Source: Candidatus Poribacteria bacterium
GTDB lineage: Bacteria; Poribacteria; WGA-4E; PCPOR2b
Assembly: GCA_022822005.1 (NCBI GenBank)
Contig: JAJECO010000066.1
Location: forward strand, 1-53,240
DNA: 53,240 nt
Direction of reading: 5' to 3'
Positions 86 through 32,000 of this stretch are shown here, one piece after another. Position 1 is the stretch's first letter; each line of letters opens with the position of its first letter. A model generated the notes under the pieces. It ran no database searches and was not told the origin of the DNA. It saw only the letters and a list, made by a program, of their open reading frames with translations. The position numbers were made by a program, and so were the translations under genes.

Positions 86-98
86 GCAAGACCAACAA

Positions 99-251: not shown

Positions 252-300
252 AATACTCACTCAATTTTATTTGACCGTACTGCGTCAAAAGATGGGATGG

Positions 301-373
<73 letters not shown>

Positions 374-411
374 GTAACTTAGGAAACAGATGCTCGGAGG
401 CAAAACTAAAA

Positions 412-484: not shown

Positions 485-533
485 GTTTCGCTTGGGACGT
501 CACAGGGACGTGTCTCCGACGCTTAGATTATGA

Positions 534-615
534 TGGGCGGAGAAGGATTTGAACCTCCGCAGGCATTGCCAACAGATTTACAGTCTGCTCCCGTTGACCA
601 CTTGGGTATCCGCCC
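534..615 (-). tRNA. tRNA-Tyr (GTA)
   Basis: Class II tRNA on the reverse strand with acceptor GGGCGGA/TCCGCCC, anticodon stem GCAGA/TCTGT, loop CTGTAAA (anticodon GTA) and a long variable arm, 82 bases in all. Discriminator A, typical for tRNA-Tyr; no encoded CCA. Confidence 0.94.
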
Positions 616-635
616 ATTAGCAAAGATAGAGTGAA

Positions 636-708
636 AGCTGGCGAGAGGACTTGAACCCCCGACTAAGTGATTACAAATCACTCGCTCTACCAACTGAGCT
701 ACGCCAGC
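636..708 (-). tRNA. tRNA-Thr (TGT)
   Basis: Cloverleaf on the reverse strand with acceptor GCTGGCG/CGCCAGC, anticodon stem AGTGA/TCACT and loop TTTGTAA (anticodon TGT). Discriminator T; no encoded CCA. It is the promoter-proximal tRNA of the cluster. Confidence 0.95.
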
Positions 709-12668: not shown

Positions 12669-12770
12669 AGACTCCCCAGCACCAACATGACAAGCTGATT
12701 CCCGCTAATTCCCTGATGCGATGGTATCATAAACCTCACCATATTTCAAGGGGTTTCTATAACCGTTGTC

Positions 12771-12879
12771 GGGCTATTCAGTTTTAGGATTTTTAGCCGT
12801 TTTGTTTGAAAAGTCGGAGTCGGGAAGTCGCTCATAGAGCGACGTGTCGGGATTGGGAAATCCTTCCTACAGAAAAACT
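12771..12879. repeat. Dispersed repeat family B, copy 1
   Basis: Reads GGGCTATTCAGTTTTAGG ... TCCTACAGAAAAACTA. Most of it matches the reverse complement of 25532-25645. It includes a hairpin GTCGCTC-ATA-GAGCGAC at 12827-12843. The ends (ATTCAGTTTT and, inverted, TAGTTTTTC) form an imperfect terminal inverted repeat. Confidence 0.7.
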
Positions 12880-13017
12880 ATGGCGAACAATACAAATAAG
12901 TATACATAATTAATCTTTGGTGCTAGTTAGTGAGAGGGTCTTTCCCACATTGTTGAAGCGTTCATTGATTCAGTAGGGTGGCTCATTGATTCGTCTTAGG
13001 TTCTACCCTTTGGCTGC

Positions 13018-17285: not shown

Positions 17286-17873
17286 CTATTCCCGCTGCTG
17301 TACCGCTTTTCGCAACGCCTGTCGTGCTTCATGCAGTCGTGATCGAACACGTCCAACAGAGCAACCGAGGACTTCCGCCAGTTCTTCGTAGGACAAGTCT
17401 TGCATTTCACGGAGGATTAGTATTTTCCGGTAATCGTCTTTGAGAGCATCGAGTGCCTTCTGTAAAATCTCCCGCTGCTCTGCCTGCAGGACCGTCCTTT
17501 CCGGGGTAGCGGTGTCGAGCGGCGCCCAAGGTTGAGAATCGTCAATCTCCATCGGATCGGTCTTACGCCGCTGCCGCTGATCCTTCAAATTGAGGCATCT
17601 ATTGGTAACGATCCGGTAGAGCCATGTCGAGAACTGCGATTTGAATCGAAACTGTCCGATATTCTCCCAAAGCCAAAGAAAAACGTCCTGTGCCACATCG
17701 CTAGCATCCTCAGGGTTTGAGAGCATCCCGTAAGCGATGTTATACACCCATTGTTGGTATTGGCGCATAATGGTTTCCATGGCTCGCTTGTCACCATTTT
17801 GACATCGGCGAACGAGCTCATGTTCATCCATGTCATGGGATCCCGCTTCGGTGGAGATTCGTTGGTCGTTCAA
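17286..17873 (-). CDS. ECF-type RNA polymerase sigma factor
   Basis: This 195-residue protein has sigma region 2 (about 25-95: YNIAYGMLSNPEDASDVAQD, FRFKSQFSTWLYRIVTNRC) and region 4 (about 135-190: LDALKDDYRKILILREMQD, LSYEELAEVLGCSVGRVRSR), and lacks regions 1 and 3, as in RpoE-like extracytoplasmic-function sigma factors. It would direct RNA polymerase to a dedicated promoter set under envelope or nutrient stress. No zinc-finger anti-sigma gene follows, so its control is not evident. The frame opens at a TTG (17873) without a clear ribosome binding site; ATG 17831 is an alternative. A consensus promoter lies at 18055-18083 on the same strand. Confidence 0.93.
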   Translation of the reverse strand: MNDQRISTEAGSHDMDEHELVRRCQNGDKRAMETIMRQYQQWVYNIAYGMLSNPEDASDVAQDVFLWLWENIGQFRFKSQFSTWLYRIVTNRCLNLKDQRQRRKTDPMEIDDSQPWAPLDTATPERTVLQAEQREILQKALDALKDDYRKILILREMQDLSYEELAEVLGCSVGRVRSRLHEARQALRKAVQQRE

Positions 17874-18108: not shown

Positions 18109-18137
18109 TTGCGAAAGTATAGCGAATCCGTTATAAT
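18109..18137 (+). promoter_or_regulatory. Sigma-70-type promoter of the ThDP enzyme cluster
   Basis: TTGCGA and TATAAT are separated by 17 bases, about 100 bases before the ATG at 18240. Confidence 0.7.
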
Positions 18138-18239: not shown

Positions 18240-19880
18240 ATGGATACAACACAAGCAGTAGCACGAATATTGAAAATTGAAGGCGTTGAATGGGTATCCT
18301 GCTTCCCCTCCAACCAACTCATCGAAGCGGTTGCCCAAGAAGGCATTCGGACCGTTATGTTCCGACACGAACGCGGAGCCGTGATGGCAGCCGACGGGTA
18401 TAGCCGTGTCAATAACCGTAATAAGTTCGGCGCTGTCATCACGCAAGGCGGTCCCGGTGCCGAAAACTCTATGGGCGGTATCGCACAGGCTTTTGCGGAC
18501 AACGTTCCGATCCTGTACCTACCGGGCGGTCCCTCAATTGATGAGTATGCCGTTCGTCCGTCCTTCTCACCGGTTCGCACATACCAAAGCGTGTCGACGT
18601 ATGGCGAAGTCATTACCAAACCGGATCAAGTTGCTAATGTCATGCGACGCGCGTTCCACCACCTTCGGAATGGTCGGCCCGGTCCCGTGATTGTTGAAAC
18701 ACCGAGCGACGTTGGGCTGCAGGCAGTGCCGGAGGATACCCTCAACTATAAGCCACCGAAGCGATCCCTCCAGGTCCCTGCCGCTAGCGATATCAAAGAC
18801 GCCGTTACGGAACTACTGAACGCGAAAAAACCTGTGATATGGTCTGGTATGGGTGTGCTGCTGTCCGGAGCGACCGAGGCACTCAGAGAGTTTGCTGAAT
18901 TGACCGAGATCCCGGTGTACTGCACCATGCCCGGCAAGTCCTCCTTTGACGAGCGGCATCCCCTTTCCGTCGGTTCTGGCAGCGGCGCGACAACCCTGCC
19001 CGCACGGCAATGGCTGCAGGAATCGGACGCCCTACTCGCCATCGGCTCCAGCATGACCCGGACGCATTACGGTCAACCGATCCCAGACGGCAAGGTCATT
19101 ATCCACAACGCCGAAAGCATCGAAGATATCAACAAAGACTTCTCCGTTGACATCGGACTGCCCGGCGATGCCAAGCTGACGTTAGAGGCTATGATCGAAG
19201 AAGCCAAATCCCAACTCGGCGAGAGCGGAAGAAAAGGCAAAACGCAGGTCGCCACAGATATTGCCAAATTGAAGAAGACGTGGATGGATGAGTGGACGCC
19301 CCTGCTCAACTCCGATGAAGAACCGATTAACACATACCGAGTGATTGGGGATATGGTCAAGGCGATGGATTTGGAGAACAGCATCGTTACCCACGATGCC
19401 GGTGCACCGCGTGACTCAATTATGCCTTTCTACCCCGGAACGGTGCCTCACAGCTACATCGGCTGGGGTAAGACTACCCACCTCGGTTTCGGCATACCGC
19501 TGATGATAGGGGCAAAGATCGCGAAACCGGATAAGTTCTGCTTGAATTTCATGGGTGATGGTGCTTTTGGCATGTCCGGCTTAGACATCGAAACCTCCGC
19601 TCGCGCGGGCGCCCCTATTACTACTGTTGTGCTCAACAACGGTGGCATGTCGACCTATCCGGGCGGCTATCCCACAGCGCGTGAACAGTTTGGCACGACC
19701 GAGATGACGGGCGACTACGCTAAGATTGCTGAAGGTATGGGTGCAGTCGGCATTACCGTCGTTAAGCCGAACGAGATGATTCCTGCGCTTGAGCAGGCGC
19801 AGCAACTGAACGCAGACGGTCGCGCGGTTTTGCTCGATGTGCATACCAACATGGAATCACGACGATCCCGATTCAGTTAG
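18240..19880 (+). CDS. ThDP-dependent acetolactate synthase-like enzyme
   Basis: The 546-residue protein has the three-domain layout of the acetohydroxyacid synthase/benzoylformate decarboxylase superfamily: an N-terminal PYR domain with catalytic Glu44 (FRHERGAVMAADGYSR), a middle domain, and a C-terminal PP domain with the ThDP/Mg motif GDG near 438 followed by NN near 466 (NFMGDGAFGMSG ... VVLNNGG). It should make or break carbon-carbon bonds next to a keto group. It lies apart from any ilvN or branched-chain pathway gene and heads a catabolic cluster, so a decarboxylase or carboligase acting on a 2-keto acid is more likely than ilvB. AAAGGAGA precedes the ATG. Substrate unknown. Confidence 0.88.
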   Translation: MDTTQAVARILKIEGVEWVSCFPSNQLIEAVAQEGIRTVMFRHERGAVMAADGYSRVNNRNKFGAVITQGGPGAENSMGGIAQAFADNVPILYLPGGPSIDEYAVRPSFSPVRTYQSVSTYGEVITKPDQVANVMRRAFHHLRNGRPGPVIVETPSDVGLQAVPEDTLNYKPPKRSLQVPAASDIKDAVTELLNAKKPVIWSGMGVLLSGATEALREFAELTEIPVYCTMPGKSSFDERHPLSVGSGSGATTLPARQWLQESDALLAIGSSMTRTHYGQPIPDGKVIIHNAESIEDINKDFSVDIGLPGDAKLTLEAMIEEAKSQLGESGRKGKTQVATDIAKLKKTWMDEWTPLLNSDEEPINTYRVIGDMVKAMDLENSIVTHDAGAPRDSIMPFYPGTVPHSYIGWGKTTHLGFGIPLMIGAKIAKPDKFCLNFMGDGAFGMSGLDIETSARAGAPITTVVLNNGGMSTYPGGYPTAREQFGTTEMTGDYAKIAEGMGAVGITVVKPNEMIPALEQAQQLNADGRAVLLDVHTNMESRRSRFS

Positions 19881-20088
19881 ATCGCCTTCGTCACAATCGG
19901 TGTGCCGTGTCGAGATATGAATCTCGACCTACGCTCACTACGGGCTGGGAAACCCAGCCCCTACGAAAATTAGTGCAATTCCAATCGTAGGGTTAGGGTT
20001 CTCTCACCCAACCTTATGACATTCCGCACAAGTCAGGTTAGGAAGCCTAACCTACGCATTCGCCCCGGCAAGTACAGAGGAACAGACT
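19881..20088. repeat. Hairpin modules ending in CCTACG
   Basis: Three hairpins stand in this gap: TCGAGAT-ATGA-ATCTCGA (19910-19927), GGGCTGGG-AAA-CCCAGCCC (19942-19960) and AGGTTAGG-AAG-CCTAACCT (20035-20053). Each 3' arm runs into CCTACG. Stem sequences differ but pairing and the tail are kept. A fourth, imperfect unit (from CGTAGGGTTAGGG at 19986) lies between them. They may also act as RNA processing or termination signals between the two genes. Confidence 0.65.
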
Positions 20089-21054
20089 ATGATTAAGTTG
20101 GTAATGATGCCACCGTTGGACGACCTGAAGCGCGAGTTTGCTCCGCGTTTGGAAGCAGACCTCCCGGAATATCGGGTCGCTGTCCCCGAAACCGACGAAG
20201 AAGCACTCCGTGAAATCGTCGATGCCGATGCAGCATACGGCTGGATCCCGCCCGATGCACTGAAGGCTGCGACAAAACTGAAATGGCTGCAAAATCCCGA
20301 TGCGGGCCCGTTTCCGGGATACTATTACAAGGAACTGATTGAGCATCCCGTGGTAGCGTGTAACCCACGCGGAATCTACTACGATCACATCAGCCACCAT
20401 ATCATGATGTTTGTGCTGGGGCTCTCTCGCGGGCTGCCCTATTACGTCGAGGCACAACGCGAGCGGAGATGGGACCCCGACGCGCGTAAGAATGGGTATG
20501 TTGACCTCACCGAATCTACTGCATTAATCTTCGGTGTAGGCGGTATCGGTCATGAGACAGCAAGACTATGTGCGGAATTCGGCATGGAAATAATCGGTGT
20601 AGAACCGAGACCCGAATATGACCTCTCGTACGTCGAGATGCACCCGCCTGCGGATCTGGATGCGCTGCTGCCGCGCGCCGATTTTGTGATAGCCACAACG
20701 CCGCACACGCCCGAAACCGAGGGGATATGGAATGCCCAACGTTTCCGTCTGATGAAGAACAGTGCCTACTTTATCAACATCGGTCGCGGCAAAACGATGA
20801 AAATCGACGACCTTACGGCCGCTGTCGAGACGGGTGAAATCGCGGGGGTCGGTCTCGATGTATTTGAGACAGAACCGCTCCCCTCAGATCACCGTTTATG
20901 GAACCTGCCCAACGTTCTGCTCACACCTCATATTGCCGTGAAGGATGCCGACAACCTTCCTGAACGCCGATTCGGGGTTCTGCTCGAAAACGCCCGTCGG
21001 TTCGCCGCGGGTGAACCGTTACGCAATGTGGTGGACAAAGCCGGGTGGTATTAA
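20089..21054 (+). CDS. D-2-hydroxyacid dehydrogenase
   Basis: This 321-residue protein carries the NAD-binding motif GVGGIGHETARLCAEFG (from about 149) and the catalytic Arg, Glu and His of the D-isomer-specific 2-hydroxyacid dehydrogenase family: NIGRGK (Arg near 231), DVFETEPLP (Glu near 262) and TPHIA (His near 281). It would interconvert a 2-keto acid and a D-2-hydroxyacid with NAD(P)H in the cytoplasm. AGAGGA is nine bases before the ATG. It follows the ThDP enzyme and precedes the DUF3604 gene by 30 bases, so all three probably share a pathway. Glyoxylate/hydroxypyruvate reductase is one possible specificity but cannot be assigned here. Confidence 0.9.
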   Translation: MIKLVMMPPLDDLKREFAPRLEADLPEYRVAVPETDEEALREIVDADAAYGWIPPDALKAATKLKWLQNPDAGPFPGYYYKELIEHPVVACNPRGIYYDHISHHIMMFVLGLSRGLPYYVEAQRERRWDPDARKNGYVDLTESTALIFGVGGIGHETARLCAEFGMEIIGVEPRPEYDLSYVEMHPPADLDALLPRADFVIATTPHTPETEGIWNAQRFRLMKNSAYFINIGRGKTMKIDDLTAAVETGEIAGVGLDVFETEPLPSDHRLWNLPNVLLTPHIAVKDADNLPERRFGVLLENARRFAAGEPLRNVVDKAGWY

Positions 21055-21084
21055 TATTTCGCGCACGAGGCGGAGCAATCATCG

Positions 21085-23244
21085 ATGACAGAATCAGAAG
21101 TTCGTGCCTTATACGGTTGGGCGGAGATTGACCCGGCTGTCCCTATTGTAGCGGGATCGGTCGGCACATGGCGTATAACCTACCACGTTGGTCGTTACGG
21201 CGTCGATGACGGTGGAGTCGTTAAATTTGCTTGGCGGGATGTTAGCGATTGGGCGGTACCCCAGTTTGAAAGTCCTTCCGCGCCGGAATACGCGACAGTC
21301 TCTACGACAGGTCCGGCATCGCTGCGGGCAAGTTTTGAAAAGCAACGCTATACCCGTCCTTGGCGGCTTTGTGTGACCGTTGATGTGTTCGATGATTCAC
21401 TGACCGAGGGGGATAGCATCACGCTAACGCTCGGAGACACCTCCGGCGGTAGTCTGGGGAGTCGGGCGCAGACTTTTTGCAAAGAGGCATTTGAGTTTCG
21501 GGTTGCGGTCGATTGGTGTGGGACATGGGTTTATACGGAGGTCCCATCGCCAAAGATTCCAATTGTTAGTGGTCCCGCCCATCGGTTGGTGGTATTGGGT
21601 CCTTCGGAAACCACGCCTGATGAGGAGGGTTGGGTCGGGGTTAAGGCAGAAGACCTCTGGGGTAATCCGAGTACTGGATATAACGGAACAGTCCAGATTG
21701 ATGCCGAGGGATTGACGGGCTTGCCAGAGACGTATCAGTTTCAGTCCAGAGACAGAGGTATTCGCCGTTTTGAAGGGGTGAAAGCCCCCAAGGTAGGGAT
21801 TTATCGAGTAAACGCCACAGACTCGGCTAATGGGTTAGATGCGGAAGGAAACCCACTCCGCTGCGTGGAGGATCGTAGCGGACATCAGCCTTTCTGGGGC
21901 GACCTGCACGGTCAGAGTGAAGAGACCGTTGGAACCAATCCGGTCTCCTCCTATTTTCGCTTTGCCCGTGAGGCGGCCCTGGTCGACTTCGCTGGACATC
22001 AGGGTAACGACTTCCAGATTACCAAGGCGGTGTGGAAGGAGATCAAAGCGCAAGCGAATACTCAATATGATCCCGGTCGGTTTGTCACTTTTGTCGGCTA
22101 TGAATGGTCAGCGAATACGCCGTTGGGAGGCGATCACAACGTCTACTATCCGGGAGAAGATGGTCCCCTGCACCGCTCCAGCCATGTGCTGATTCCTGAC
22201 AAATCGGATATTGATACCGACTGCACGCATGTTACAGAGCTCTATGTCACGTTGCGGGGAGAAGATGTGCTGCTGCTCCCCCATGTCGGGGGACGTTACG
22301 CGAATCTTAACTGGCACGACCCGGAATTGGAGCCGCTTGTTGAGGTCTATTCCGAATGGGGCGAGTTCGAGTGGTTTTTGCGGGAAGCGTTGGAGAAAGG
22401 TTACCGCGTCGGTTTCACGGCTGGGAGTGACGATCACAAGGGCCGTCCCGGTGCTGCGCCGCCGGGCAGCGGCTCGTTCGGCGTGTACGGCGGATTGACC
22501 TGTATCTATGCAACGGAGCTAACACGGGCAGGACTGTGGGAAGCCCTGAAAGCACGTCGCTGTTACGGCACAACCGGGCAGCGCATCTTGCTTGAGGTGA
22601 CCGCCGACGGGAAACCGATGGGATCGGCGTTACACGCAAGCGAGCCGCCGGAAATCGCTGTGAAGGTGATTGGCTCGGCACCCATTGAACGGATAGACAT
22701 CTTCAGAGGGTTGGAACAGATCTACACCTTCCCGCAGACAACCGAACGTGCGGAAGATCAGATCCGTGTTACATGGTCGGGTCAGCGTATCCGGGCACGA
22801 AACCGACTGGTACGGTGGGACGGAAACCTTGAGATAGATAGGGGACAAATTCTGGAGGCGAAAGGTTACGCCTTTGATACTCCGGCTGAAGGGATCGAAA
22901 TGGTAACCGAGCGGAGCGTCTCTTGGAAGTCTGTGACCACCGGGGACGCGGATGGCGTGGTTCTGAAACTCAATGCACCGGGTGAGACAGTCCTTGATTT
23001 TAGGACAGCTGTCCTGACTCGAACTGTCACGCTTCAAGAGATGAGTGAGTCACCCGTTGCCGTTGATGCCGGTGGGATTGACATGAAGGTTGTGTTTGAA
23101 GGGCTGCCGTTGGGCGTTGGCAGGGAAGTAGCGTTTACATTTCAGGAGGCGGCATTGCCCGCAGGCTGCCATCCATATTGGGTTCGCGTGTTGCAGACGG
23201 ACGGGGCGAAGGCGTGGGCAAGCCCCATCTACGTAACAGTATAA
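21085..23244 (+). CDS. DUF3604 family protein with PHP-like metal site
   Basis: The 719-residue protein matches DUF3604: an N-terminal beta-rich part of about 270 residues, then a PHP-like metal-binding region with WGDLHGQSEE, DFAGHQGNDFQ, YEWSANTPLGGDHNVYY, LLLPHVGGRYANLNWH and FTAGSDDHKGRPG. The many His and Asp residues suggest a metal-dependent hydrolase related to PHP phosphoesterases; no reaction is established that I can name. There is no signal peptide. The gene begins 30 bases after the dehydrogenase, with GGAG before the ATG, so it is probably in the same operon. The remaining C-terminal part (about 560-719) looks like one or two beta-sandwich domains. Confidence 0.85.
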   Translation: MTESEVRALYGWAEIDPAVPIVAGSVGTWRITYHVGRYGVDDGGVVKFAWRDVSDWAVPQFESPSAPEYATVSTTGPASLRASFEKQRYTRPWRLCVTVDVFDDSLTEGDSITLTLGDTSGGSLGSRAQTFCKEAFEFRVAVDWCGTWVYTEVPSPKIPIVSGPAHRLVVLGPSETTPDEEGWVGVKAEDLWGNPSTGYNGTVQIDAEGLTGLPETYQFQSRDRGIRRFEGVKAPKVGIYRVNATDSANGLDAEGNPLRCVEDRSGHQPFWGDLHGQSEETVGTNPVSSYFRFAREAALVDFAGHQGNDFQITKAVWKEIKAQANTQYDPGRFVTFVGYEWSANTPLGGDHNVYYPGEDGPLHRSSHVLIPDKSDIDTDCTHVTELYVTLRGEDVLLLPHVGGRYANLNWHDPELEPLVEVYSEWGEFEWFLREALEKGYRVGFTAGSDDHKGRPGAAPPGSGSFGVYGGLTCIYATELTRAGLWEALKARRCYGTTGQRILLEVTADGKPMGSALHASEPPEIAVKVIGSAPIERIDIFRGLEQIYTFPQTTERAEDQIRVTWSGQRIRARNRLVRWDGNLEIDRGQILEAKGYAFDTPAEGIEMVTERSVSWKSVTTGDADGVVLKLNAPGETVLDFRTAVLTRTVTLQEMSESPVAVDAGGIDMKVVFEGLPLGVGREVAFTFQEAALPAGCHPYWVRVLQTDGAKAWASPIYVTV

Positions 23245-23296
23245 CCCAACTAACAAAATAAGGAAAACAATCGTTGTTCTCTTGGGAGGCAAACAG

Positions 23297-24439
23297 ATGG
23301 CACAGATAGACCAATTGGTTTTAGACTTAGAAACCCCTCACATCCTGTTAGATCAGGATAGATTACAAGCCAACATCCAACTGATTCAGGGCATCGGTAA
23401 TACTCGCGGCGTCAACGTTCGACCACATATTAAAACTCACAAGTGCCTTGAACTCGCCCGACAACAGATAGACGCAGGTGCGGTTGGCGTTACGTCTTCG
23501 AAGGTGGACGAAGCACTTGTTTTTATTAACAACGGCATCCGTTCCGTTACTGTGGCGTATCCCCTCGTCGTCGATTCAAAACTGGACCGTCTCATCGCTG
23601 CCGCACGGGTGAACGATACGGATCTTCGACTCATCGTTGATAGCGCTGCGGGAGTCGATGCGATCGCCAAGGTAGCGGAAAGACACGGGAAACAGGTCAG
23701 CATCTTCTTGAAGATAGATGTGGGGTTACACCGTTGCGGACTCACGGAAGATGATTCGGGGTTGGTCGAGTTGGTGCAGAAAGTTGTCGGAGAACCCAAT
23801 CTGAATTTTGTAGGGCTGCTATCTCATGCCGGGCACACCTATGGGGCAGATGACGCCGATGCAGCGCGAAAAATTGCCGCAGACGAGTGCGGGATTATGA
23901 ACCGCGTACGGCGGAAACTGGAAAGCAACGGTATCGAGGTATCGGAAGTATCCGTCGGATCCACGCCCGGCACCCTTGTGAGCGATAGTTACGACGGTAT
24001 CACTGAGATTCGGCCGGGCAATTATGTCTTCATGGATAGAATGCCGCTGCGTCTCAAGGTGATTGAGATAAATCAGATTGCGCTGTCAGTGTTGGCAACA
24101 GTGGTGAGTAAAAATTCGGACTACTTCATTATTGACTCCGGTTCCAAAACGCTGAGCTCAGATCAGGGCGCACACGGAATGCCGGGGATGGAAGGATTCG
24201 GGCTTGCATACCCCCTAGATCACTTCGAGGATACAGATTACGAAATGATTGTTACCCGACTATCGGAAGAGCATGGGGTTGTCATACGAGGAGATCTTGA
24301 TCTGGAGATAGGTTCCAAAGTCCGAGTCGTACCAAATCACTCATGTGTCGTTGCAAACCTATTAGACACCTACACAGTGCTACAGGCTGGACAGATCATT
24401 GACCAATGGGACATCGCTGCCCGTGGACACGTCCATTAA
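23297..24439 (+). CDS. Fold-III PLP enzyme, D-threonine aldolase/DSD1-like
   Basis: This 380-residue protein has an alanine racemase-like N-terminal barrel with the PLP lysine in RPHIKTHKC (Lys46), and a C-terminal metal-binding motif VVPNHSCVVANL typical of D-threonine aldolases, D-serine dehydratases and 3-hydroxy-D-aspartate aldolases. It would cleave or dehydrate a D-3-hydroxyamino acid. The start was set at ATG 23297 because GGGAGG lies just before it; an in-frame TTG at 23282 would overlap that site. Neighbours suggest it feeds a glyoxylate- or pyruvate-like product to the 2-hydroxyacid dehydrogenase or ThDP enzyme, but this link is only inferred. Confidence 0.88.
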   Translation: MAQIDQLVLDLETPHILLDQDRLQANIQLIQGIGNTRGVNVRPHIKTHKCLELARQQIDAGAVGVTSSKVDEALVFINNGIRSVTVAYPLVVDSKLDRLIAAARVNDTDLRLIVDSAAGVDAIAKVAERHGKQVSIFLKIDVGLHRCGLTEDDSGLVELVQKVVGEPNLNFVGLLSHAGHTYGADDADAARKIAADECGIMNRVRRKLESNGIEVSEVSVGSTPGTLVSDSYDGITEIRPGNYVFMDRMPLRLKVIEINQIALSVLATVVSKNSDYFIIDSGSKTLSSDQGAHGMPGMEGFGLAYPLDHFEDTDYEMIVTRLSEEHGVVIRGDLDLEIGSKVRVVPNHSCVVANLLDTYTVLQAGQIIDQWDIAARGHVH

Positions 24440-24501
24440 TTCCCCTTTTGGGTATTTCCCAACGGAGCAAGATAGCCTATGTCCAACAGGAAGGATCCGC
24501 C

Positions 24502-25443
24502 ATGACAATTCAAGACCACCTTTCCTTAGACGGAATCAACGACGATAACCTCAGCATTTTCAAGGCAATTGGCGTGGATTATGTTGCGGTTATGCATCCA
24601 CCACCGGCCAAGCCCGATGATAGTGCGGATATCTGGAAAGAGGTGTGCAAAAAAGTGGAATCTCACGGGATGAAGTTTAATAATGTCGGACTCAGACCCG
24701 CTAAAGAGATTACGCTTGGCAAACCCGGCAGAGATGAGCACATCGAGGGTTGGTGTACCCTGATCCGCAATATGGGGGAAGCCGGTGTCCCGACGCTGTG
24801 TTACAACTTCCGGGGCATCGGGAACTTTCGGACAGCGGCGACTGTTGGTAGGGGCGGAGCACGTTACAGCACATTCGACTACGACGAGTTCATAAAGGAA
24901 GCCCCCGATTACCCCGATCACCATATCTCCGAAGAAGATCTTCGATCGAATTTGCAGCACTTCCTCGCATGCATTGTGCCGGTAGCCGAAGAAGCGGAGG
25001 TGCAGCTCACCATGCATCCGGACGACCCGCCGCGCCCGGAGCCACTTGGCGGTGCAGCTCGAATCCTGTCCACCCTCGACGATTTTGAGCGTATGTTTAA
25101 CGCGGTTCCAAGTCATGCAAACGCTATGCTGTTTTGTCAGGGATGTGTCCGTGAAATGGGAGAAGATGTGCCGACCGCTATCCGGCGCATTGGAGCGCAG
25201 AACAAAATTGCTGCCGTCCACTTCCGCAACCTGCGGGGTACCCCAGATAAGTTTCAGGAGGTTTTCGTGGACGAGGGGGAAGTAGATATGTACGAAGCGA
25301 TGCAGACCTACCGCGAGGTGGGTTTTGAGGGCCCCTTCATGATGGATCATACCCCCAGTTTCCCTCAAGAAAAGGCCCAGTGGGCAGGGCGCGCCTTTGC
25401 TGTTGGTTATATCCGATCGATGATCCAAGCAGTCTACCGGTAA
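24502..25443 (+). CDS. Mannonate dehydratase-like TIM barrel (UxuA family), copy 1
   Basis: The 313-residue protein resembles D-mannonate dehydratase (UxuA): LTMHPDDPPRPEPLGGAARI, MLFCQGCVREMGED, AVHFRNLRGTPDKFQE and DEGEVDMYEAMQ are characteristic blocks. UxuA converts D-mannonate to 2-keto-3-deoxygluconate in hexuronate breakdown. It is shorter than E. coli UxuA (about 394) but similar to compact members. ATG 24502 was selected because AGGAAGG precedes it; longer upstream frames overlap the preceding gene. It shares the block order of the protein at 25756, so the pair are paralogues. Specificity for mannonate itself is not certain. Confidence 0.82.
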   Translation: MTIQDHLSLDGINDDNLSIFKAIGVDYVAVMHPPPAKPDDSADIWKEVCKKVESHGMKFNNVGLRPAKEITLGKPGRDEHIEGWCTLIRNMGEAGVPTLCYNFRGIGNFRTAATVGRGGARYSTFDYDEFIKEAPDYPDHHISEEDLRSNLQHFLACIVPVAEEAEVQLTMHPDDPPRPEPLGGAARILSTLDDFERMFNAVPSHANAMLFCQGCVREMGEDVPTAIRRIGAQNKIAAVHFRNLRGTPDKFQEVFVDEGEVDMYEAMQTYREVGFEGPFMMDHTPSFPQEKAQWAGRAFAVGYIRSMIQAVYR

Positions 25444-25472
25444 TTTCAATATTACTAACCGTTTATCTATTT

Positions 25473-25743
25473 GATGGTAGGTTTTAGGTTTACTTAGACA
25501 TTCCTGGTGTAGAGCCAACCCCCTATAGGGTCATTTAGTTTTTCTGTAGGAGGGATTTCCCAATCCCGACACGTCGCGCTATGAACGACTGCCCGACTCC
25601 GACTTTTCAAACAAAATGGGTAATAAGCCTAAAACTGAATAGCCCTACAACCCCCTAAATCCCCCTTGTCAGGGGGACTTTGAAACCTTCGCGAAAGTCG
25701 GAGTTATTGGTAAATGTCTACTAATGTCTCTAATTCACAGTAA
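25473..25743. mobile_element. Family A inverted-repeat element, copy 2, interrupted by family B
   Basis: The left end (GATGGTAGGTTTTAGGTTTA from 25473) and right end (GGTAAATGTCTACTAATG to CACAGTAA at 25709-25743) are imperfect inverted repeats. The core has the hairpin CCCCC-TTGTCA-GGGGG (25661-25676). A second repeat, inverted relative to 12771-12879, fills 25532-25645. The right end is 12 bases before the start codon at 25756 and runs into the ribosome binding site AAGGAG. This accounts for nearly all of the 312-base gap. Confidence 0.65.
25532..25645. repeat. Dispersed repeat family B, copy 2 (inverted, nested)
   Basis: Reads CATTTAGTTTTTCTGTAGG ... CCTAAAACTGAATAGCCCTA and matches the reverse complement of 12771-12879 over most of its length, with the palindromic middle less well kept. 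It splits the family A core between AGCCAACCCCCTA and ACCCCCTAAATCCCCC. Confidence 0.7.
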
Positions 25744-25755
25744 GGAGAAGAAAAG

Positions 25756-26751
25756 ATGATGAAAATTGGCACCCGTATCAGTCCCGATTGGTTGGACCGT
25801 CCGAACGACCTTGCCTTTCTCAAACAGATCGGCGTTGATTGCGTGGACATCACGTTGAATATCTGTCCCGGATATTCAGAAGCAGGGGGTCGAGCAAACC
25901 GCGCGGGACTCGAACAAGTGGTAGAAGCCATCGACAAAGCGGGGCTCAAGATTGAACGCGCTAACACCGCTAACAGTGACTGCATCAAGACCTTTCTCGG
26001 CCAGCCCGGTTCCGAAGAAGAGATTGACAACCTGATTGTCAACGCGGAACTCTGTGGCGAGTTCGACCTACCGGTGATGGGCATCCAATGTTTCCAAGCG
26101 GGCCAATTCGGTCATTTCCCAGAGTCTATGCACAGTTTCATTGAGGGACGCGGCGGATATAAGCACCTAAAAGTGGACCTGAACGAAGCCCTGAACCAAC
26201 CGCCGCCGGAAGGCGCACCTACCCACGATGAAATATGGGAACGCACCCTGAAAATCTTTAAGAGCGTGGTGCCCGTCGCAGAGAGCGTTGGCGTCAAGGT
26301 TGCGATGCACGGAAACGATCCACCGGTTCCCAGTCTTTACGGTGTGCCACAGGTCCTCTACAACTTTGCGGCATTTGATCGCCTTTTTTCCGAAGTGCCT
26401 TCACCAAACAACGGTATGACCTTCTGCGTAGGTACGCGCTATGAGTCGGGCGAAAATGTCTTTGAGGGGATTCGGCACTTCGGGGCACAGGGCAAAATCT
26501 TTCACGTCCACTTCCGTAACGTGCGCGGAAAGATCCCTGAAAAGAGAGGGTACGAAGAGGTAATCCCGGACTCCGGTGACATGGATATGTACCGCGTGGC
26601 TAAAGCGTTGCACGATGTGGGATATGATGCCGTCATCGACTACGACCACATCATGCGACTCAGCACGGATGGACCTGAGGGCAGAGAATATATCGCGTAC
26701 TGTGTTGGTCACATGCGTGGGTTGCTTCAGGCACTTGAAAGCAATGCTTAA
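25756..26751 (+). CDS. Mannonate dehydratase-like TIM barrel (UxuA family), copy 2
   Basis: This 331-residue paralogue of the preceding gene shows VAMHGNDPPVPSLYGVPQVL, MTFCVGTRYESGEN, FHVHFRNVRGKIPEK and SGDMDMYRVAKAL. In the metal/substrate block, HPDDPP is changed to HGNDPP, so one acidic residue is lost relative to copy 1 and to classical UxuA. It may act on a different sugar acid or serve as an epimerase-like partner. The AAGGAG ribosome binding site is formed at the end of a family A element. Three start residues (MMK) leave a one-codon ambiguity. Both copies stand in the catabolic cluster begun at 18240. Confidence 0.82.
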   Translation: MMKIGTRISPDWLDRPNDLAFLKQIGVDCVDITLNICPGYSEAGGRANRAGLEQVVEAIDKAGLKIERANTANSDCIKTFLGQPGSEEEIDNLIVNAELCGEFDLPVMGIQCFQAGQFGHFPESMHSFIEGRGGYKHLKVDLNEALNQPPPEGAPTHDEIWERTLKIFKSVVPVAESVGVKVAMHGNDPPVPSLYGVPQVLYNFAAFDRLFSEVPSPNNGMTFCVGTRYESGENVFEGIRHFGAQGKIFHVHFRNVRGKIPEKRGYEEVIPDSGDMDMYRVAKALHDVGYDAVIDYDHIMRLSTDGPEGREYIAYCVGHMRGLLQALESNA

Positions 26752-26755
26752 CGGT

Positions 26756-27571
26756 ATGTTAGAAACGCGCCACCGGTCAATGTCTACCTTCCGGTTCCAG
26801 AACCTGTCGAAACAGGGTAGGATAGACCACTTTGTTTCGACCCGGATCGGCGGTCTAAGCTCCCCACCTTACGAATCCCTTAATATAGGATTTCACGTTG
26901 GAGATACGCCTGAAACTGTCCTGAGTAATCGCGCACGTTTGGCAGGAAACGTCAGAATACCGCTCTCCGATTTTGTAGTCGCCAAACAGGTTCATAGCGG
27001 GACAGTGACAATCGTAACGGAGGGGATGAGAGGCTATGGTGCAATGGATCTTGACACCGCGATTGAAGAGACAGATGCGACGGTGACAGATGTTCCCCAC
27101 CTATGCCTGACGGTTCTTATGGCGGACTGTGTGCCGGTACTCTTCTTCGACCCGCGAAAGAGAGTCGTAGCTGCGGTTCATGCTGGCTGGCGGGGGACTG
27201 TTAAATTGGCAGCGCAGAACACGGTTAACAGTTTAAGGGAGAACTTCAGCTGCGATCCGGCCGATATTCTGGTAGGGATCGGTCCTTCCATCGGTCCTTG
27301 CCACTATGAGGTTGGTCCCGAAGTGATCTCAGAAGTTGAGGAAACCTTTGGCAGCACGGATGGCTATATCAACGGCGAATCCGCCGATGGCAAGGGGCAT
27401 TTTGACCTTTGGGAAGCTAACAAGCGGCAAATTATAGAGACAGGTATCCCAGGACAAAACATAGAGGTCGCTCAGATATGTACCTATTGCAACCCACACC
27501 TGTTTTTTTCTGAACGGCACCAAAAGGGAAGGACGGGTAGATTCGGGGCGGGCATTATGGTGTCAGCATGA
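26756..27571 (+). CDS. pgeF: Purine nucleoside phosphorylase/laccase-domain protein
   Basis: The 271-residue protein is a member of the YfiH/PgeF (Cu-oxidase_4, polyphenol oxidase) family: FVSTRIGGLSSPPYESLNIG, KQVHSGTVTIV (zinc His), LMADCVPVLFFDP (zinc Cys) and AAVHAGWRGTVKL (zinc His), then VGIGPSIGPCHYEVGPEV and CTYCNPHLFFSERHQ. Members act on purine nucleosides or remove mis-incorporated L-Ser from peptidoglycan precursors. The frame is open well into the preceding gene; ATG 26756 is preferred, with 26744 and 26780 as alternatives, and no strong ribosome binding site is seen. It starts a few bases after the UxuA-like gene, so it may be read from the same transcript though unrelated in function. 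Confidence 0.9.
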   Translation: MLETRHRSMSTFRFQNLSKQGRIDHFVSTRIGGLSSPPYESLNIGFHVGDTPETVLSNRARLAGNVRIPLSDFVVAKQVHSGTVTIVTEGMRGYGAMDLDTAIEETDATVTDVPHLCLTVLMADCVPVLFFDPRKRVVAAVHAGWRGTVKLAAQNTVNSLRENFSCDPADILVGIGPSIGPCHYEVGPEVISEVEETFGSTDGYINGESADGKGHFDLWEANKRQIIETGIPGQNIEVAQICTYCNPHLFFSERHQKGRTGRFGAGIMVSA

Positions 27572-27598
27572 GTCGATAGCAATTAAAATCGAAAGAAA

Positions 27599-28420
27599 AT
27601 GGGCAAAACCGTCACACGAGAATTAAGTGAGATTATTGAGAATATTGAAGCGCATTCGGGTGCAGCGTTCCATCGCAGCGCACCAAGAGAGTACGCCGCA
27701 AAACTCGGTATTGAAACCGAAAATATTGGTTCGGCGACGCTGCTATCAGTCCGAAAGAGTAACAGTCTATATTTCAATCGCGTCCTTGGTCTTGGGCTTG
27801 CCTCGCAAACGAATATGAAACAGATTGAGCAGATTATCGATTACTACACGGGGCAGAAGATTAAGCGCTTTGCGATTGAGCTAAGTCCATTGGCTAAACC
27901 GAATAGAATTGTGAATTGGCTGGAACAGCAAGGGTTTCACGAATCAGAGGGCACAGCGAAGATGTATCAAGACGGTTCGCCGATCCAGAACGAAAAACCA
28001 GACTTTCGTATCAAGAGAGTCGATGCTACTCAAGCCTCCGATTGGTTCGCCGTCATGTCAACAATCTTTACTCAGTTTAGGAGTAGAAGGGAATGGTTTG
28101 AGGCGCGCTTCAGCCTCCCACAATGGCATCATTATTTGGCGTTTGATAGCGATGAACCTGTTGCGGTTGCAGCGATGTACCTCCAAGATGGCGCGGCACA
28201 TTTGACAGATGCCGCCACGCTTTCGGGATTTCGTCGGCGTGGGATTCAAAAGGCAATGATTCATCAACGGGTGCTTGACGGGCTCGAATTGGGTTGCAGT
28301 TGGTTCACGAGCGAGACAGCCGCACCTAAACCACGTAATCCGCTCATCTCACATCGTAATCTACGGCGCACTGGTTTCGAGATGGCATACGTTCGAGGAA
28401 AGTATGTATGGGAAGCGTAA
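27599..28420 (+). CDS. GNAT family N-acetyltransferase
   Basis: The 273-residue protein has an N-terminal part of about 135 residues of unclear fold and a C-terminal GNAT domain (about 140-273). The acetyl-CoA-binding loop is visible as LSGFRRRGIQKAMIHQRV (R-x-x-G-x-x-x-A), followed by FTSETAAPKPRNPLISHRNL and RTGFEMAYVRGKYVWE, a pattern of GNAT proteins with a second degenerate N-terminal copy. It would transfer an acetyl group to an amine on a small molecule or protein. It follows pgeF by 27 bases. No substrate can be inferred. Confidence 0.82.
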   Translation: MGKTVTRELSEIIENIEAHSGAAFHRSAPREYAAKLGIETENIGSATLLSVRKSNSLYFNRVLGLGLASQTNMKQIEQIIDYYTGQKIKRFAIELSPLAKPNRIVNWLEQQGFHESEGTAKMYQDGSPIQNEKPDFRIKRVDATQASDWFAVMSTIFTQFRSRREWFEARFSLPQWHHYLAFDSDEPVAVAAMYLQDGAAHLTDAATLSGFRRRGIQKAMIHQRVLDGLELGCSWFTSETAAPKPRNPLISHRNLRRTGFEMAYVRGKYVWEA

Positions 28421-28466
28421 TCGCTCAGCGATGTATCCGCTGATTATGTGATAACTCCGCTTCTGT

Positions 28467-28892
28467 CTACCTTGTAATAATCAGATACATACCGCTACAG
28501 ACGAGAAGTACGCCGAGAACATATCGTAAGGTGAGCGGTTCCCGTAATAATATCATGCCCGCCAAACTGGTCAGCAGTATCCCTCCGAACCGGATAACCG
28601 GCGAGCCGAGCGAAATCGGTGCGCCTGCGCTAAAGGTGACATACAATCCCAAGGTCACGCCGCTGAAGGCAAATCCCATCCCGATACTCGCCAAAACACC
28701 CGAGAGCTGGGCAGGTTGCGGCATACCACGCGCCCATTGCCAAAGCACCCAAGTGAGTCCAGTCGAGAATGTACAGCAGCCGTATATCAACATTAACAGA
28801 CTACTGGAAATCCTGTTCGCTGCCAGTTTCACACACAGATCCGCAGCAGCCAATGCACACGCGGTAATTGCTGCGTATTTTATCCAGCCCAT
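28467..28892 (-). CDS. Small single-domain EamA/DMT transporter
   Basis: At about 141 residues this protein has four to five hydrophobic helices and the EamA motif PVIRFGGILLTSLAGMIL followed by LREPLTLRYVLGVLLVCSGMYL. Full EamA transporters have two such domains (about 300 residues); a single one suggests it works as a dimer, like the small multidrug resistance family and related half-size DMT proteins. Substrate unknown. A TTG at 28898 and ATG at 28892 are both possible starts, with AAGGGG upstream. It is on the opposite strand to its neighbours. Confidence 0.78.
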   Translation of the reverse strand: MGWIKYAAITACALAAADLCVKLAANRISSSLLMLIYGCCTFSTGLTWVLWQWARGMPQPAQLSGVLASIGMGFAFSGVTLGLYVTFSAGAPISLGSPVIRFGGILLTSLAGMILLREPLTLRYVLGVLLVCSGMYLIITR

Positions 28893-29066
28893 GTTCAAAT
28901 TTGCCCCTTAGCGGTCAACGCTACTGACTGTTATTATCGTTTAATTGAATTGCGGTGTGAGTCCCCGTCTGTTTCCACACAAGCATATCCTAAAGTAGGG
29001 ATAACGTCAAGTATAGAAGTACACAATAATCTATAACATGAGGCACTTAGGTAGGAATAGCCGATA

Positions 29067-32000
29067 ATGAAATCCGTATTCAGACTGTCCGTCAACAATC
29101 CTGTACTGGTTCACATGATCACCATCGCGGTAATTGTATTCGGATCATACATGCTCATCAATATGCCCCGCGAGCTCGAACGCGATATGTCCTTCAACTG
29201 GGCGCTTATTTGGGTGGTGTATCCCGGCGTTTCGCCCGACGAGATCGAAAAACTGATTACTAAGCCGATCGAGGACGAGATCGCTGATGTAAATAAAATT
29301 GAGTCTATCACCTCAACCGCCGCTGAAGGATTCACCGGCATCAGCGTCAAATTTGATCAGAATATCTCACGCGACGAGTTTGACAGACTGTATCAAGACC
29401 TCCGCACAGAGTTGGATAAAGTCCAGAATTTGCCTCAACATGCGGAAGATCCTGTCATGTTCAAGCTGGAGTCAAATACACTAACACCGGTGATTGACGT
29501 TGTTGTAGCAGGGGACTTCCCTGAAAAAGAGAGGCGCGAGCTGGCGGAAGAGCTCCAAGACGAAATCGAAGCGGTTGAAGACGTTTTGGAGGTTTCGGTC
29601 TACGGGATACGCGACCGCCAGATCTGGGTTGAGGTCGATCCTGACCGCCTTGATCGGTATTCACTGACGCTGCAACAAATTGTCGGCGCGTTGGCAGCTA
29701 AGAATATAAATGTCCCTGCGGGAGAGCTGAACATTGGACGGTTAGAATACCTGCTCCGTACCGTCGGTGAGTTCGATTCGATCAACCAAATCCAGAATGT
29801 GATTGTGCAGCAGATTCCCGACGGCGGTAAGATCCGAATCAGGGACGTTGCACAGATTCGGAATACCTATGAAGAAGCCACCGTAATTCCCCGCTTGAAC
29901 GGCAAACCCGCAATTACACTCTCGGTGGCAAAGCGGGGCGAAGGAAGTACGACCCAGATTGTTGACACGGTACGAACCATAGTAGAAAAGTATCGGACAA
30001 CTCGGTTGCCGGAAGGCGCGGAAATCACATTGGTGAACGACAGTTCAATCCATATTCGTAATTCGCTCGGCAAGCTACAAACAAACGCCCTTTTCGGTGT
30101 ACTGCTTGTTCTCCTTGCCTTGTGCATCTTCATGGGACTGAGGAACGCAATCTTTGTCGCGATTGGCATTCCGTTGACACTATTAATGACTTTTGGTCTG
30201 ATGGGCGTCGCCAACGAATCAATTAACAACATGTCGTTGTTCGGGTTGGTGTTGGTGCTTGGTATCATTGTGGACGATGCTATTATTGTGATGGAAAATG
30301 TCTATCGTCGGATGCAGGAGGGCGAGTCACCGATCCAAGCTGCTGTCAACGGGGCACATGAAGTTGCTTTGCCCGTGATAACAGCCTCCTTAACGACTGC
30401 TGCAATCTTCCTCCCACTTGCGCTATTGCCGGGGATTGTGGGCAAGTTCATGAAGATCATCCCAATCATCGTCGCCTTGACGCTCGCAGCCTCTCTGTTT
30501 GAATGTTTCTTCGTCTTGCCGCTCCACATCGCGGATTGGGGAAAAGTCCGACATTCCAAGTCGGAGGACCGGTTGATGCGCTACCTCCTAAAGCCGTACA
30601 CCAGACTCCTGAAATTCGCGCTACGCCGTCGGTACTGGGTGCTGGGTGGTATTGTCCTTTGCCTATTCCTGAGTTTTCTGCCCATCCGCTTCGGATTGGT
30701 CGAGGTTGACATGTTCCGTGGCGACGAGTATCCAATGATTTTTGTCCATGTCACGATGCCTGTAGGCACCAGCTTGGAGACAACGGATGAGGTCCTCCGC
30801 GAATTTGAGGCAGTGACGCTTGCTATGCCCAAATCTGAAGTTAAGGCGGTCATCGCGAGAACTGGGTGGCACGAGATAGATAACGATTTTAACGAGCGCA
30901 ACGGCAACCTCGGAATGCTCCACATTGAGATCGCCGAAGCCAAAGATCGTGAGCGAACACTTGATGAAATCATCGTGGAACTCCGCCAGAAATACAGTCG
31001 CATCACAGGACCCAATCGAATTGGATTTCAGACAAGGGAAGAGGGACCTCCCGCCGGTAAGGATGTCGAAGTCATAGTGAAAGGAAAGTACTTCGACGAA
31101 CTGGAAGCAATCGCCGACGATCTAAAATCAAGACTCGCAAAGATTCCCGGCGTCACTGACATCAACGACAACTACGCTTTGGGGCAAGAAGAGATCAAAC
31201 TGCACGTTGACGAGGACAAGGCTAACGAATATGGGTTGACGGTCCAGCAGATTGCCTCGACCACGCGCAATGCGTTTGAAGGTACAACGGCAACCGTATT
31301 CCGCGATGGCGATGAAGAGATTGATGTGATCGTCAAATTCAGTGAATTTGCTCGCAGAGGGGTAGAAAATGTGGAGAACTTGAAACTGAGGGGAGCAACC
31401 GGGGTGCCGGTGCCACTCCGCGATGTTGCCCAACTGAGTGTGGCGCAAGGTTATTCTACCATTCATCGCTACAAACAGGAGAGAGCCATCACAATCACCG
31501 CCAATGTGGATGAAAATGTAGTTTCTGGTGTGAACGTGAATCAGCGACTCCGCGCCCGCTTCGATAAAATTAGCCCGCGCTATCCGGGCTACAGCCTCGA
31601 ATCGGGCGGCGAATTTGCCGAGTTCCAGCAGGTTTTTTCAGACATTCCCGTCTTCTTCGCACTTGGGATTATGCTGGTCTATTTTATATTGGGAACGCAG
31701 TTCAGGTCCTTCCTCCAACCGTTAATTATTCTGATGACCGTTCCCTTCGCATTCATTGGCGCGATGGTAGGACTGATCACCTCTGGAAACCCCTTGAGTG
31801 TCGCCTCGACATACGGGCTTGTCGCACTCGCCGGGATTGTCGTTAATGACTCGATTGTGTTGGTTGCGTTTATCAACCGTCAACGGACGGCGGGAGCTGG
31901 GAAATGGCAGGCGATTATCAATGCAGGACGCACGCGCCTGCGCCCGATCCTGCTCACCTCAATCACGACCGTGAGCGGTCTGCTGCCGATGGCGTTAGGA

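What the first reader, a model, noticed from the sequence alone, without database searches (positions are those of the whole stretch)
18240..26751. Six-gene cluster that could be an undescribed sugar-acid or hydroxyamino-acid pathway
A ThDP enzyme, D-2-hydroxyacid dehydrogenase, DUF3604 protein, fold-III PLP aldolase-like enzyme and two UxuA-like dehydratases are all on the plus strand. The PLP enzyme could release glyoxylate or pyruvate, which the dehydrogenase or ThDP enzyme could use; the UxuA-like proteins would feed sugar acids. A promoter with 17-base spacing starts the cluster. DUF3604 has no established function that I can name.
Basis: inference. Interest (0 to 1): 0.55.

Follow-up and report, generated by a model that had tools for sequence, protein, structure and literature searches.

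The report
Poribacterial hydroxy-acid enzyme gene cluster
Six neighbouring enzyme genes in an uncultured Poribacteria bacterium are real and stay together in its genus but not in the relatives examined beyond it; they may degrade an unknown hydroxy acid, and that pathway is still a guess.

Summary
The six plus-strand genes (18240-26751) are real and roughly correctly assigned. The genome is a Candidatus Poribacteria. Five genes are collinear in 5 of 6 genus genomes, all six in 3; the remaining genome (88% complete) also lacks PgeF and the sigma factor on either side, so it is uninformative. In 9 genomes outside the genus orthologues occur singly: no two share a contig, although short contigs limit this in two. 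The neighbouring PgeF-RND pair stays linked in another family. The unit is therefore lineage-specific.

Corrections: the PLP enzyme has the His-x-Cys metal motif of D-hydroxyamino-acid dehydratases, not the aldolases' His-x-Asp. The UxuA-like proteins fall below curated UxuA cut-offs. DUF3604 has a PHP metallohydrolase fold with an altered metal motif. The promoter match exists, but such sites are no commoner than chance; dispersed repeats lie in two gaps.

Best lead: this ThDP orthologue, shared with Chloroflexota (including SAR202) and other phyla, lies beside a D-2-hydroxyacid dehydrogenase in three separate tree positions (7 of 76 adjacent slots against 4 of 863 other flanking genes). I read a hydroxy acid to 2-oxo acid to ThDP route, which is inference. 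That the genes merely neighbour one another is about as likely.

The parts
18240..19880 (+). ThDP-dependent enzyme, acetolactate synthase / glyoxylate carboligase-like superfamily (NF004807, PRK06154 type), 546 aa
   Evidence: NF004807 633.9 bits against a cut-off of 607; Glu44 invariant in 9 orthologues; nearest solved chains BbmA 8x3x and a glyoxylate carboligase
20089..21054 (+). D-2-hydroxyacid dehydrogenase, 321 aa
   Evidence: PF02826 180 bits; nearest solved chains 3hg7 and 5mh5
21085..23244 (+). DUF3604 protein with a PHP metallohydrolase-type domain (about residues 257-505), 719 aa
   Evidence: PF12228 62.4 bits; model of residues 236-600 matches PHP structures, Z 18.2 to 3e38 and 17.0 to 2anu; motif I reads H-G-Q instead of H-x-H
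23297..24439 (+). fold-III PLP enzyme, D-hydroxyamino-acid dehydratase type, 380 aa
   Evidence: PF14031 71.1 bits; best solved match D-threo-3-hydroxyaspartate dehydratase 3wqc; His348-x-Cys350 invariant in 9 orthologues
24502..25443 (+). UxuA-like TIM-barrel protein 1, 313 aa; present at this locus in 3 of 6 genus genomes
   Evidence: PF03786 173.5 bits; below NCBIfam mannonate dehydratase cut-offs; absent between PLP and UxuA-like 2 in G001 and G002
25756..26751 (+). UxuA-like TIM-barrel protein 2, 331 aa
   Evidence: PF03786 114.7 bits; below NCBIfam cut-offs
25526..25647 (.). dispersed repeat of about 122 bases in the gap between the two UxuA-like genes
   Evidence: 39 further copies of 99 bases or more, 81-96% identical, among the 56 rows (345 candidates, only 40 scored); the same gap is 78 bases in G005
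19887..20080 (.). gap after the ThDP gene holding a short dispersed motif
   Evidence: 41 matches (itself included) in the genome to window 19885-20075, mostly a stretch of about 25 bases
18109..18137 (+). sigma-70-like promoter match upstream of the ThDP gene
   Evidence: 10 of 12 consensus bases, spacing 17; number of such sites in the region not above shuffles
26780..27571 (+). PgeF (peptidoglycan editing factor), closely downstream; not part of the proposed pathway
   Evidence: TIGR00726 186 bits against a cut-off of 141; gap of 31 bases in 4 of 5 genus genomes, counted from codon 26783

Best explanation
A genus-specific catabolic gene group of Candidatus Poribacteria that handles an unidentified hydroxy acid or beta-hydroxyamino acid. 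Proposed core: the D-2-hydroxyacid dehydrogenase oxidises a D-2-hydroxy acid to a 2-oxo acid. The PLP dehydratase makes a 2-oxo acid plus ammonia from a D-beta-hydroxyamino acid. The ThDP enzyme decarboxylates or carboligates the 2-oxo acid. The PHP-type hydrolase and the UxuA-like enzymes would act earlier, releasing or dehydrating the substrate. The logic resembles the mandelate pathway (hydroxy-acid oxidation, then a ThDP step). Shown: the genes, families, motifs, genus-level linkage and the recurrent ThDP-dehydrogenase adjacency. Inferred: every substrate, the reaction order and co-transcription.
For: D-2-hydroxyacid dehydrogenases lie next to ThDP orthologues on the same strand in 7 of 76 adjacent slots against 4 of 863 other flank genes. 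On the ThDP tree these are three separate placements, with dehydrogenases only 28-37% identical between them. An FMN_dh-family gene (the class of 2-hydroxyacid oxidases, recalled) sits beside it in L128. The PLP orthologue has a different D-2-hydroxyacid dehydrogenase nearby in G011 and G014. The PLP metal motif is of the dehydratase type, which yields a 2-oxo acid. Five genes are collinear in 5 of 6 genus genomes. A second cluster in the same genome (L076) again combines a ThDP enzyme of the family, two UxuA-like genes, a PLP lyase-type enzyme and a CehA/McbA PHP hydrolase.
Against: Outside the genus no two of the six genes share a contig in 9 genomes. Their phyletic patterns differ: G008 has DUF3604 and UxuA-like orthologues without ThDP, dehydrogenase or PLP orthologues; G006 has only the PLP gene; G009, G012 and G019 only the dehydrogenase. 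UxuA-like 1 is missing in 2 of 5 clusters. Most flanking genes are just as syntenic within the genus. Apart from the 3 genus loci, none of the 80 ThDP loci has a PLP or UxuA-like relative among the ORFs kept, and only one has a weak DUF3604-type hit (L164, 33 bits). Beside other ThDP orthologues lie many other families, such as GFO_IDH_MocA, Fe-ADH, gamma-glutamyltranspeptidase, amidohydrolase and 3-dehydroquinate synthase. The PLP gene has no dehydrogenase nearby in G006 and G007. The adjacency test is not phylogenetically corrected, is post hoc, and its 300-base limit was set after a first look.
Confidence: 0.35

Rival explanations
1. No shared pathway: neighbouring genes from families that are strongly expanded in Poribacteria ended up side by side in the genus ancestor and persist through ordinary short-range synteny.
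For: The genome holds about 27 UxuA-like candidates, 25 D-2-hydroxyacid dehydrogenase matches and 6 ThDP genes of this family, this one included. Orthologues are scattered outside the genus. Flanking genes are mostly collinear within the genus too. PgeF-RND stays linked in another family while no cluster pair does. Dispersed repeats and an 809-base gap in G005 break the run.
Against: Recurrent independent ThDP-dehydrogenase pairs, and a second cluster of the same enzyme classes in the same genome.
Confidence: 0.37
2. Sugar-acid (uronate/aldonate) degradation, with the UxuA-like enzymes as working dehydratases.
For: Two UxuA-family proteins; the His, Cys, His and Asp-His positions of the UxuA motif are kept in the alignments to solved mannonate dehydratases (which residues bind metal is recalled). 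UxuA-like genes lie near ThDP genes of this family in four separate contexts.
Against: Scores are below the curated UxuA cut-offs. The proteins are shorter than UxuA in the middle by roughly 25-60 residues, judged from the alignments. No kinase, sugar-acid aldolase or uronate isomerase was recognised among the ten window genes scanned; more distant genes were not scanned for these. UxuA-like 1 is absent in G001 and G002.
Confidence: 0.12
3. Glyoxylate handling like the beta-hydroxyaspartate cycle, with the PLP enzyme as aldolase and the ThDP enzyme as glyoxylate carboligase.
For: The best NCBIfam model of the PLP enzyme is BhcC; glyoxylate carboligases are among the nearest solved ThDP relatives.
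Against: BhcC 168.7 bits against 690 needed, and glyoxylate carboligase 217.4 against 791. Aldolase Asp and His are replaced. Glu44 is present, whereas glyoxylate carboligase has Val there (recalled).
Confidence: 0.05
4. A small biosynthetic cluster in which the ThDP enzyme makes an acyloin that the other enzymes tailor.
For: The best solved ThDP match is BbmA; the third-ranked fold match of the DUF3604 domain is PsfC of Pseudomonas syringae.
Against: No ligase or other assembly gene among the ten window genes scanned; an AcrB-type transporter gene lies further downstream at 29067. BbmA's role could not be read.
Confidence: 0.07

Closest known systems
Mandelate pathway (mandelate racemase, mandelate dehydrogenase, benzoylformate decarboxylase; recalled, and seen as a reference title in PMC6946804)
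   Same: Logic of hydroxy-acid oxidation to a 2-oxo acid followed by a ThDP enzyme; some ThDP orthologues in Chloroflexota also lie beside MR_MLE (enolase-type) genes (L125, L150, L152) or an FMN_dh gene (L128).
   Different: The dehydrogenase is of the PF02826 type, the ThDP enzyme is of the acetolactate synthase type, and no racemase was recognised in this cluster.
D-threo-3-hydroxyaspartate dehydratase (3wqc) and Zn-dependent D-serine dehydratase (3anu)
   Same: Fold-III PLP relatives with a His-x-Cys metal site.
   Different: Distant (187 bits to 3wqc); C-terminus more like the aldolases; substrate unknown.
UxuA mannonate dehydratase
   Same: PF03786 family and motif positions.
   Different: Shorter in the middle and below NCBIfam cut-offs.
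PHP superfamily / CehA-McbA metallohydrolases
   Same: PHP fold with high structural scores.
   Different: CehA_McbA model 47.7 bits against a cut-off of 80; motif I H-G-Q.
SAR202 catabolic paralogue expansions (PMC6946804)
   Same: Similar theme of expanded dehydratase-type families; the ThDP orthologue is shared with SAR202 genomes.
   Different: The passages seen discuss enolase paralogues; 'thiamine' does not occur in the main text.

Membership tests
NF004807 (PRK06154) ThDP family | curated score cut-off | tested here: met
   633.9 against 607 bits, residues 1-544
Glyoxylate carboligase | curated score cut-off (NF008431) | tested here: not met
   217.4 against 791 bits
D-hydroxyamino-acid dehydratase (D-THA / D-Ser type) | His-x-Cys metal site | tested here: met
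   His348-x-Cys350 in all 9 orthologues aligned, aligned to the His-x-Cys of 3wqc
D-hydroxyamino-acid dehydratase (D-THA / D-Ser type) | PF14031 domain and PLP lysine region | tested here: met
   71.1 against 22 bits; Lys46 invariant; that it is the PLP lysine is inferred from the alignment
D-hydroxyamino-acid dehydratase (D-THA / D-Ser type) | dehydratase activity and substrate | not testable with these tools
   needs an enzyme assay
D-threonine aldolase / BhcC | His-x-Asp metal site | tested here: not met
   His-x-Asp in 4v15, 7dib, 6qkb and 7yqa; Cys in the query
D-threonine aldolase / BhcC | base His193 (AxDTA) | tested here: not met
   aligned residue is Gly183, counted by hand on the alignment; role of His193 from passages of PMC4401734
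D-threonine aldolase / BhcC | NF045642 BhcC cut-off | tested here: not met
   168.7 against 690 bits
UxuA mannonate dehydratase | curated score cut-offs | tested here: not met
   148 and 96.8 against 191 (NF003027); 97.1 and 62.6 against 199.55 (TIGR00695)
UxuA mannonate dehydratase | metal-site residues | tested here: met
   His, Cys, His and Asp-His positions kept in alignments; their role as ligands is recalled
DUF3604 (PF12228) | Pfam gathering score | tested here: met
   62.4 against 20.4 bits
PHP superfamily | fold | tested here: met
   Z 18.2 to 3e38 (219 aligned, rmsd 3.4); model mean pLDDT 59.7, blocks of the domain core mostly 55-90
PHP superfamily | motif I His-x-His | tested here: not met
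   H-G-Q in the window and its orthologues; H-N-H, H-G-H or H-I-H in the six most distant relatives aligned; the motif name is recalled
CehA/McbA metallohydrolase | NF038032 cut-off | tested here: not met
   47.7 against 80 bits
D-2-hydroxyacid dehydrogenase | PF02826 domain | tested here: met
   180 against 25.1 bits
Beta-hydroxyaspartate cycle | BhcA-D gene set | tested here: inconclusive
   BhcC equivalog not met; BhcA, B and D were not searched for genome-wide, only the ten window genes were scanned
Conserved pathway operon | linkage beyond one genus | tested here: not met
   0 of 9 genomes outside the genus with two of the six on one contig; partly untestable in G007 and G008, whose contigs are short

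The most novel reading that the evidence does not exclude
An undescribed recurrent catabolic module in Poribacteria: PHP hydrolase + UxuA-like dehydratases + a PLP lyase of beta-hydroxyamino acids + a PRK06154-type ThDP enzyme. It occurs twice in one genome with unrelated PLP folds (fold III in the window, a beta-eliminating lyase/GntG-like one at L076) and different PHP subfamilies, so the enzyme classes rather than particular genes are what is kept together.
Probability: 0.2. Interest if true: 0.6.

Novelty: new variant of a known kind. Interest (0 to 1): 0.35.

Why it matters
Poribacteria are uncultured bacteria, many of them sponge symbionts (recalled; passages of PMC8546597), with large sets of paralogous catabolic enzymes in this genome and few assigned substrates. 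The ThDP orthologue here is 61-78% identical in Chloroflexota (including SAR202 and Caldilineaceae), Entotheonella, Latescibacteria and Pseudomonadota, so a substrate found for it would inform many uncultured lineages. Giving DUF3604 a PHP-type fold, and the PLP enzyme a dehydratase-type site, offers direct assay choices.

Tried and rejected
Single operon: not supported. Gaps vary between genomes (ThDP-dehydrogenase 153-270, DUF3604-PLP 52-809, UxuA1-UxuA2 78-312 bases). Promoter matches are at chance (6 against 7.7) and terminator matches only slightly above it (13 against 8.8 +/- 3.1).

G004 as evidence of cluster loss: rejected. It also lacks the orthologues of PgeF and the sigma factor (best 38%) and is 88% complete, so an assembly gap is the simplest reading.

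UxuA proximity to ThDP genes: four contexts out of about 16 that I judged informative have a UxuA-like gene within about 8 kb. The expectation is about 1.1 from some 27 candidates per 6 Mb. Contexts were grouped by hand after seeing the data; 0 of 7 arbitrary G001 regions had a UxuA-like gene, and 1 of 7 had a D-2-hydroxyacid dehydrogenase.

Adjacency count: a first listing (ORFs of 80 aa or more, gaps under 250 bases) gave 81 same-strand slots with 6 dehydrogenases; a spurious ORF hid L133. The second (120 aa, 300 bases, dehydrogenase ORFs given priority in the gene choice everywhere) gave 7 of 76. In one search, 9 of 80 loci had lost even the ThDP ORF to an overlapping frame, so absences stated hold only for the ORFs kept.

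The first DUF3604 model (8 sequences) left most of the catalytic domain below pLDDT 50; the second, with 15 sequences of the domain, was used. Repeat search within the gaps found nothing, and two patterns typed from the gaps occur once each in the window; the repeats are dispersed ones. No paper explained BbmA, and a crystal-structure paper on mannonate dehydratase was not found. Searches 'DUF3604' (1 paper, listing only) and 'Poribacteria' + 'mannonate dehydratase' (0 papers) give no function. Of PMC4401734, PMC6946804 and PMC8546597 I saw passages only; other papers only as search listings.


Full report
What is there. The window is contig C88 of a 6.0 Mb genome. The six ORFs are intact on the plus strand; domain hits are. 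All six evolve under purifying selection within the genus.

Conservation. I searched each of the six proteins in the same 15 genomes (ThDP in 58 genomes that include these 15) and fetched surroundings (mapped). In the genus, G000, G003 and G005 carry all six genes in order, and G001 and G002 carry five without UxuA-like 1: 5 of 6 genomes. The flanks (ComEC-type competence protein and AcrB-type RND transporter, Pfam; AP-endonuclease-type TIM barrel, sigma factor, PgeF, GNAT) are largely collinear too where the held DNA reaches. Exceptions: neither GNAT nor RND was found in the 3.4 kb held after PgeF in G001, and GNAT is only partly matched in G002 and G005. G004 lacks the cluster but also PgeF and the sigma orthologue. 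In the 9 genomes outside the genus, orthologues of 60% identity or more are present as follows: ThDP in 4, dehydrogenase in 7, PLP in 4, DUF3604 in 1, UxuA-like 2 in 2, and UxuA-like 1 or its close paralogue in 2 (plus two fragments in G014:C76). No two are on one contig. In G007 and G008 several contigs are only 3-12 kb, so linkage there is only partly testable; in G011 and G014 the contigs are 35-150 kb except G014's ThDP contig (12 kb), and the G011 dehydrogenase lies 1 kb from a contig end. As a positive control, PgeF and the RND gene remain neighbours in G009 and G012 of another family, without the cluster in the 19.5 kb held. The cluster is therefore an assembly of this genus as far as seen, and UxuA-like 1 is a variable member.

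Transcription unit. Gaps are 208, 30, 52, 62 and 312 bases in the window. The 312-base gap contains a repeat of about 122 bases; 39 further copies of 99 bases or more at 81-96% identity are listed (345 candidates, 40 scored). The 208-base gap contains a motif of about 25 bases with about 40 further matches. In G005 an 809-base gap separates DUF3604 and PLP. PgeF follows UxuA-like 2 by 31 bases (from codon 26783) in 4 of 5 genomes.

PLP enzyme. The best solved match is D-threo-3-hydroxyaspartate dehydratase 3wqc (187 bits). All 9 orthologues carry P-N-H-(S/A)-C. The aldolases 4v15, 7dib, 6qkb and 7yqa carry His-x-Asp. PMC4401734 states that His347 and Asp349 bind the metal in D-threonine aldolase, that the chicken D-serine dehydratase uses a histidine and a cysteine, and that the base His193 is absent from the dehydratase (passages). 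The query has Gly183 at the His193 position (counted by hand). I therefore read it as a dehydratase, which releases ammonia and a 2-oxo acid rather than glyoxylate. Against this, its C-terminal Trp-Asp-Ile-Ala-Ala-Arg-Gly resembles the aldolase 4v15, and the C42 paralogue scores highest against aldolases yet also has His-x-Cys, so the motif alone is not proof.

ThDP enzyme and its neighbours. NF004807 is met. A scan of named genomes returned the best 80 of 335 confirmed relatives: mostly Chloroflexota, with Poribacteria, Latescibacterota, Entotheonella and Pseudomonadota. Among the ORFs kept, DUF3604, PLP and UxuA-like relatives occur near it only in the three genus loci, apart from one weak DUF3604-type hit of 33 bits in L164. 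Two-hydroxyacid dehydrogenases, however, sit on the same strand directly beside it in L088, L089, L133 (this genus, downstream), L106, L116, L119 (Chloroflexota, upstream) and L122 (Chloroflexota, upstream): 7 of 76 same-strand slots under 300 bases, against 4 of 863 other flanking genes (Fisher p 4e-6, not corrected for relatedness). On the tree these form three separate placements: the Poribacteria clade (support 97), L106/L116/L119 (94), and L122 beside L127, which lacks the gene (92) (quick method, SH-aLRT only, long branches flagged for the paralogue rows, L129, L153, L160 and L161). The dehydrogenases are 28-37% identical between placements. PF02826 was confirmed for L106 and L122, and an FMN_dh gene is adjacent in L128. 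The other 69 slots hold many other families. The PLP orthologue has a non-orthologous PF02826 gene 0.5-1.3 kb downstream in G011 and G014, but none near it in G006 and G007.

DUF3604. No solved relative was found by sequence. A model of residues 236-600 made with 15 sequences (mean pLDDT 59.7) matches PHP structures: 3e38 (Z 18.2), 2anu (17.0), PsfC (16.1) (Foldseek gave 3 matches at E 0.001 or better, all PHP-containing). The aligned motif I is H-G-Q, while the six most distant Poribacterial relatives read H-N-H, H-G-H or H-I-H, so activity may differ.

UxuA-like proteins. Both are in PF03786 but below curated cut-offs, and the genome has about 27 candidates. The UxuA motif positions are kept.

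A second cluster. L076 (G000:C76) carries a ThDP paralogue (45%), two UxuA-like genes (one confirmed by Pfam), a beta-eliminating-lyase PLP enzyme (GntG / L-threonine aldolase-like, below NCBIfam cut-offs) and a CehA/McbA protein (152 bits, cut-off 80). All six genus genomes have its ThDP, PLP and CehA genes together; a UxuA-like gene is with them in 5 (the G002 contig ends first). Beyond the genus none of these partners is kept, except that G011 and G014 have a different UxuA-like gene next to the ThDP orthologue. This recurrence of classes is the basis of the novel case, and it was noticed after the fact.

Verdict. The finding is real but lineage-specific. A hydroxy-acid / 2-oxo-acid role is the best-supported functional reading at 0.35, about equal to no shared pathway at 0.37.

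Noticed in passing
window 25526-25647 and 12765-12880: A dispersed repeat of about 122 bases with 39 further copies of 99 bases or more listed in this genome; two copies lie in the window, on opposite strands.
   Followed up: partly
L076 3120-17174 (G000:C76): A second cluster with a ThDP enzyme, two UxuA-like genes, a PLP lyase-type enzyme, a CehA/McbA hydrolase and a PhyH dioxygenase; the ThDP, PLP, CehA and PhyH genes are together in all 6 genus genomes.
   Followed up: partly
window 26751-32180: PgeF follows the cluster by about 30 bases; the PgeF-RND linkage is also found in a different Poribacterial family (G009, G012), although the two functions look unrelated.
   Followed up: partly
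window 17286-17873 and L014 2118-2672: ECF-type sigma factors lie divergent to the ThDP gene both in this genus and, with a differently starting protein, in G007; possible regulators.
   Followed up: no
L106 8899-9906, L122 3540-4547, L128 11700-12806, L150 9969-11138, L152 3316-4518: In Chloroflexota the ThDP orthologue lies beside D-2-hydroxyacid, FMN-dependent or enolase-superfamily enzymes.
   Followed up: partly
window 11-708: Five tRNA genes (Trp, Thr, Gly, Tyr, Thr) on the minus strand at the window start.
   Followed up: no
L049 8278-9089 (G005), between the PLP and DUF3604 genes: An 809-base gap between the DUF3604 and PLP genes, against 52-81 bases in the other four genus genomes with the cluster.
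   Followed up: no
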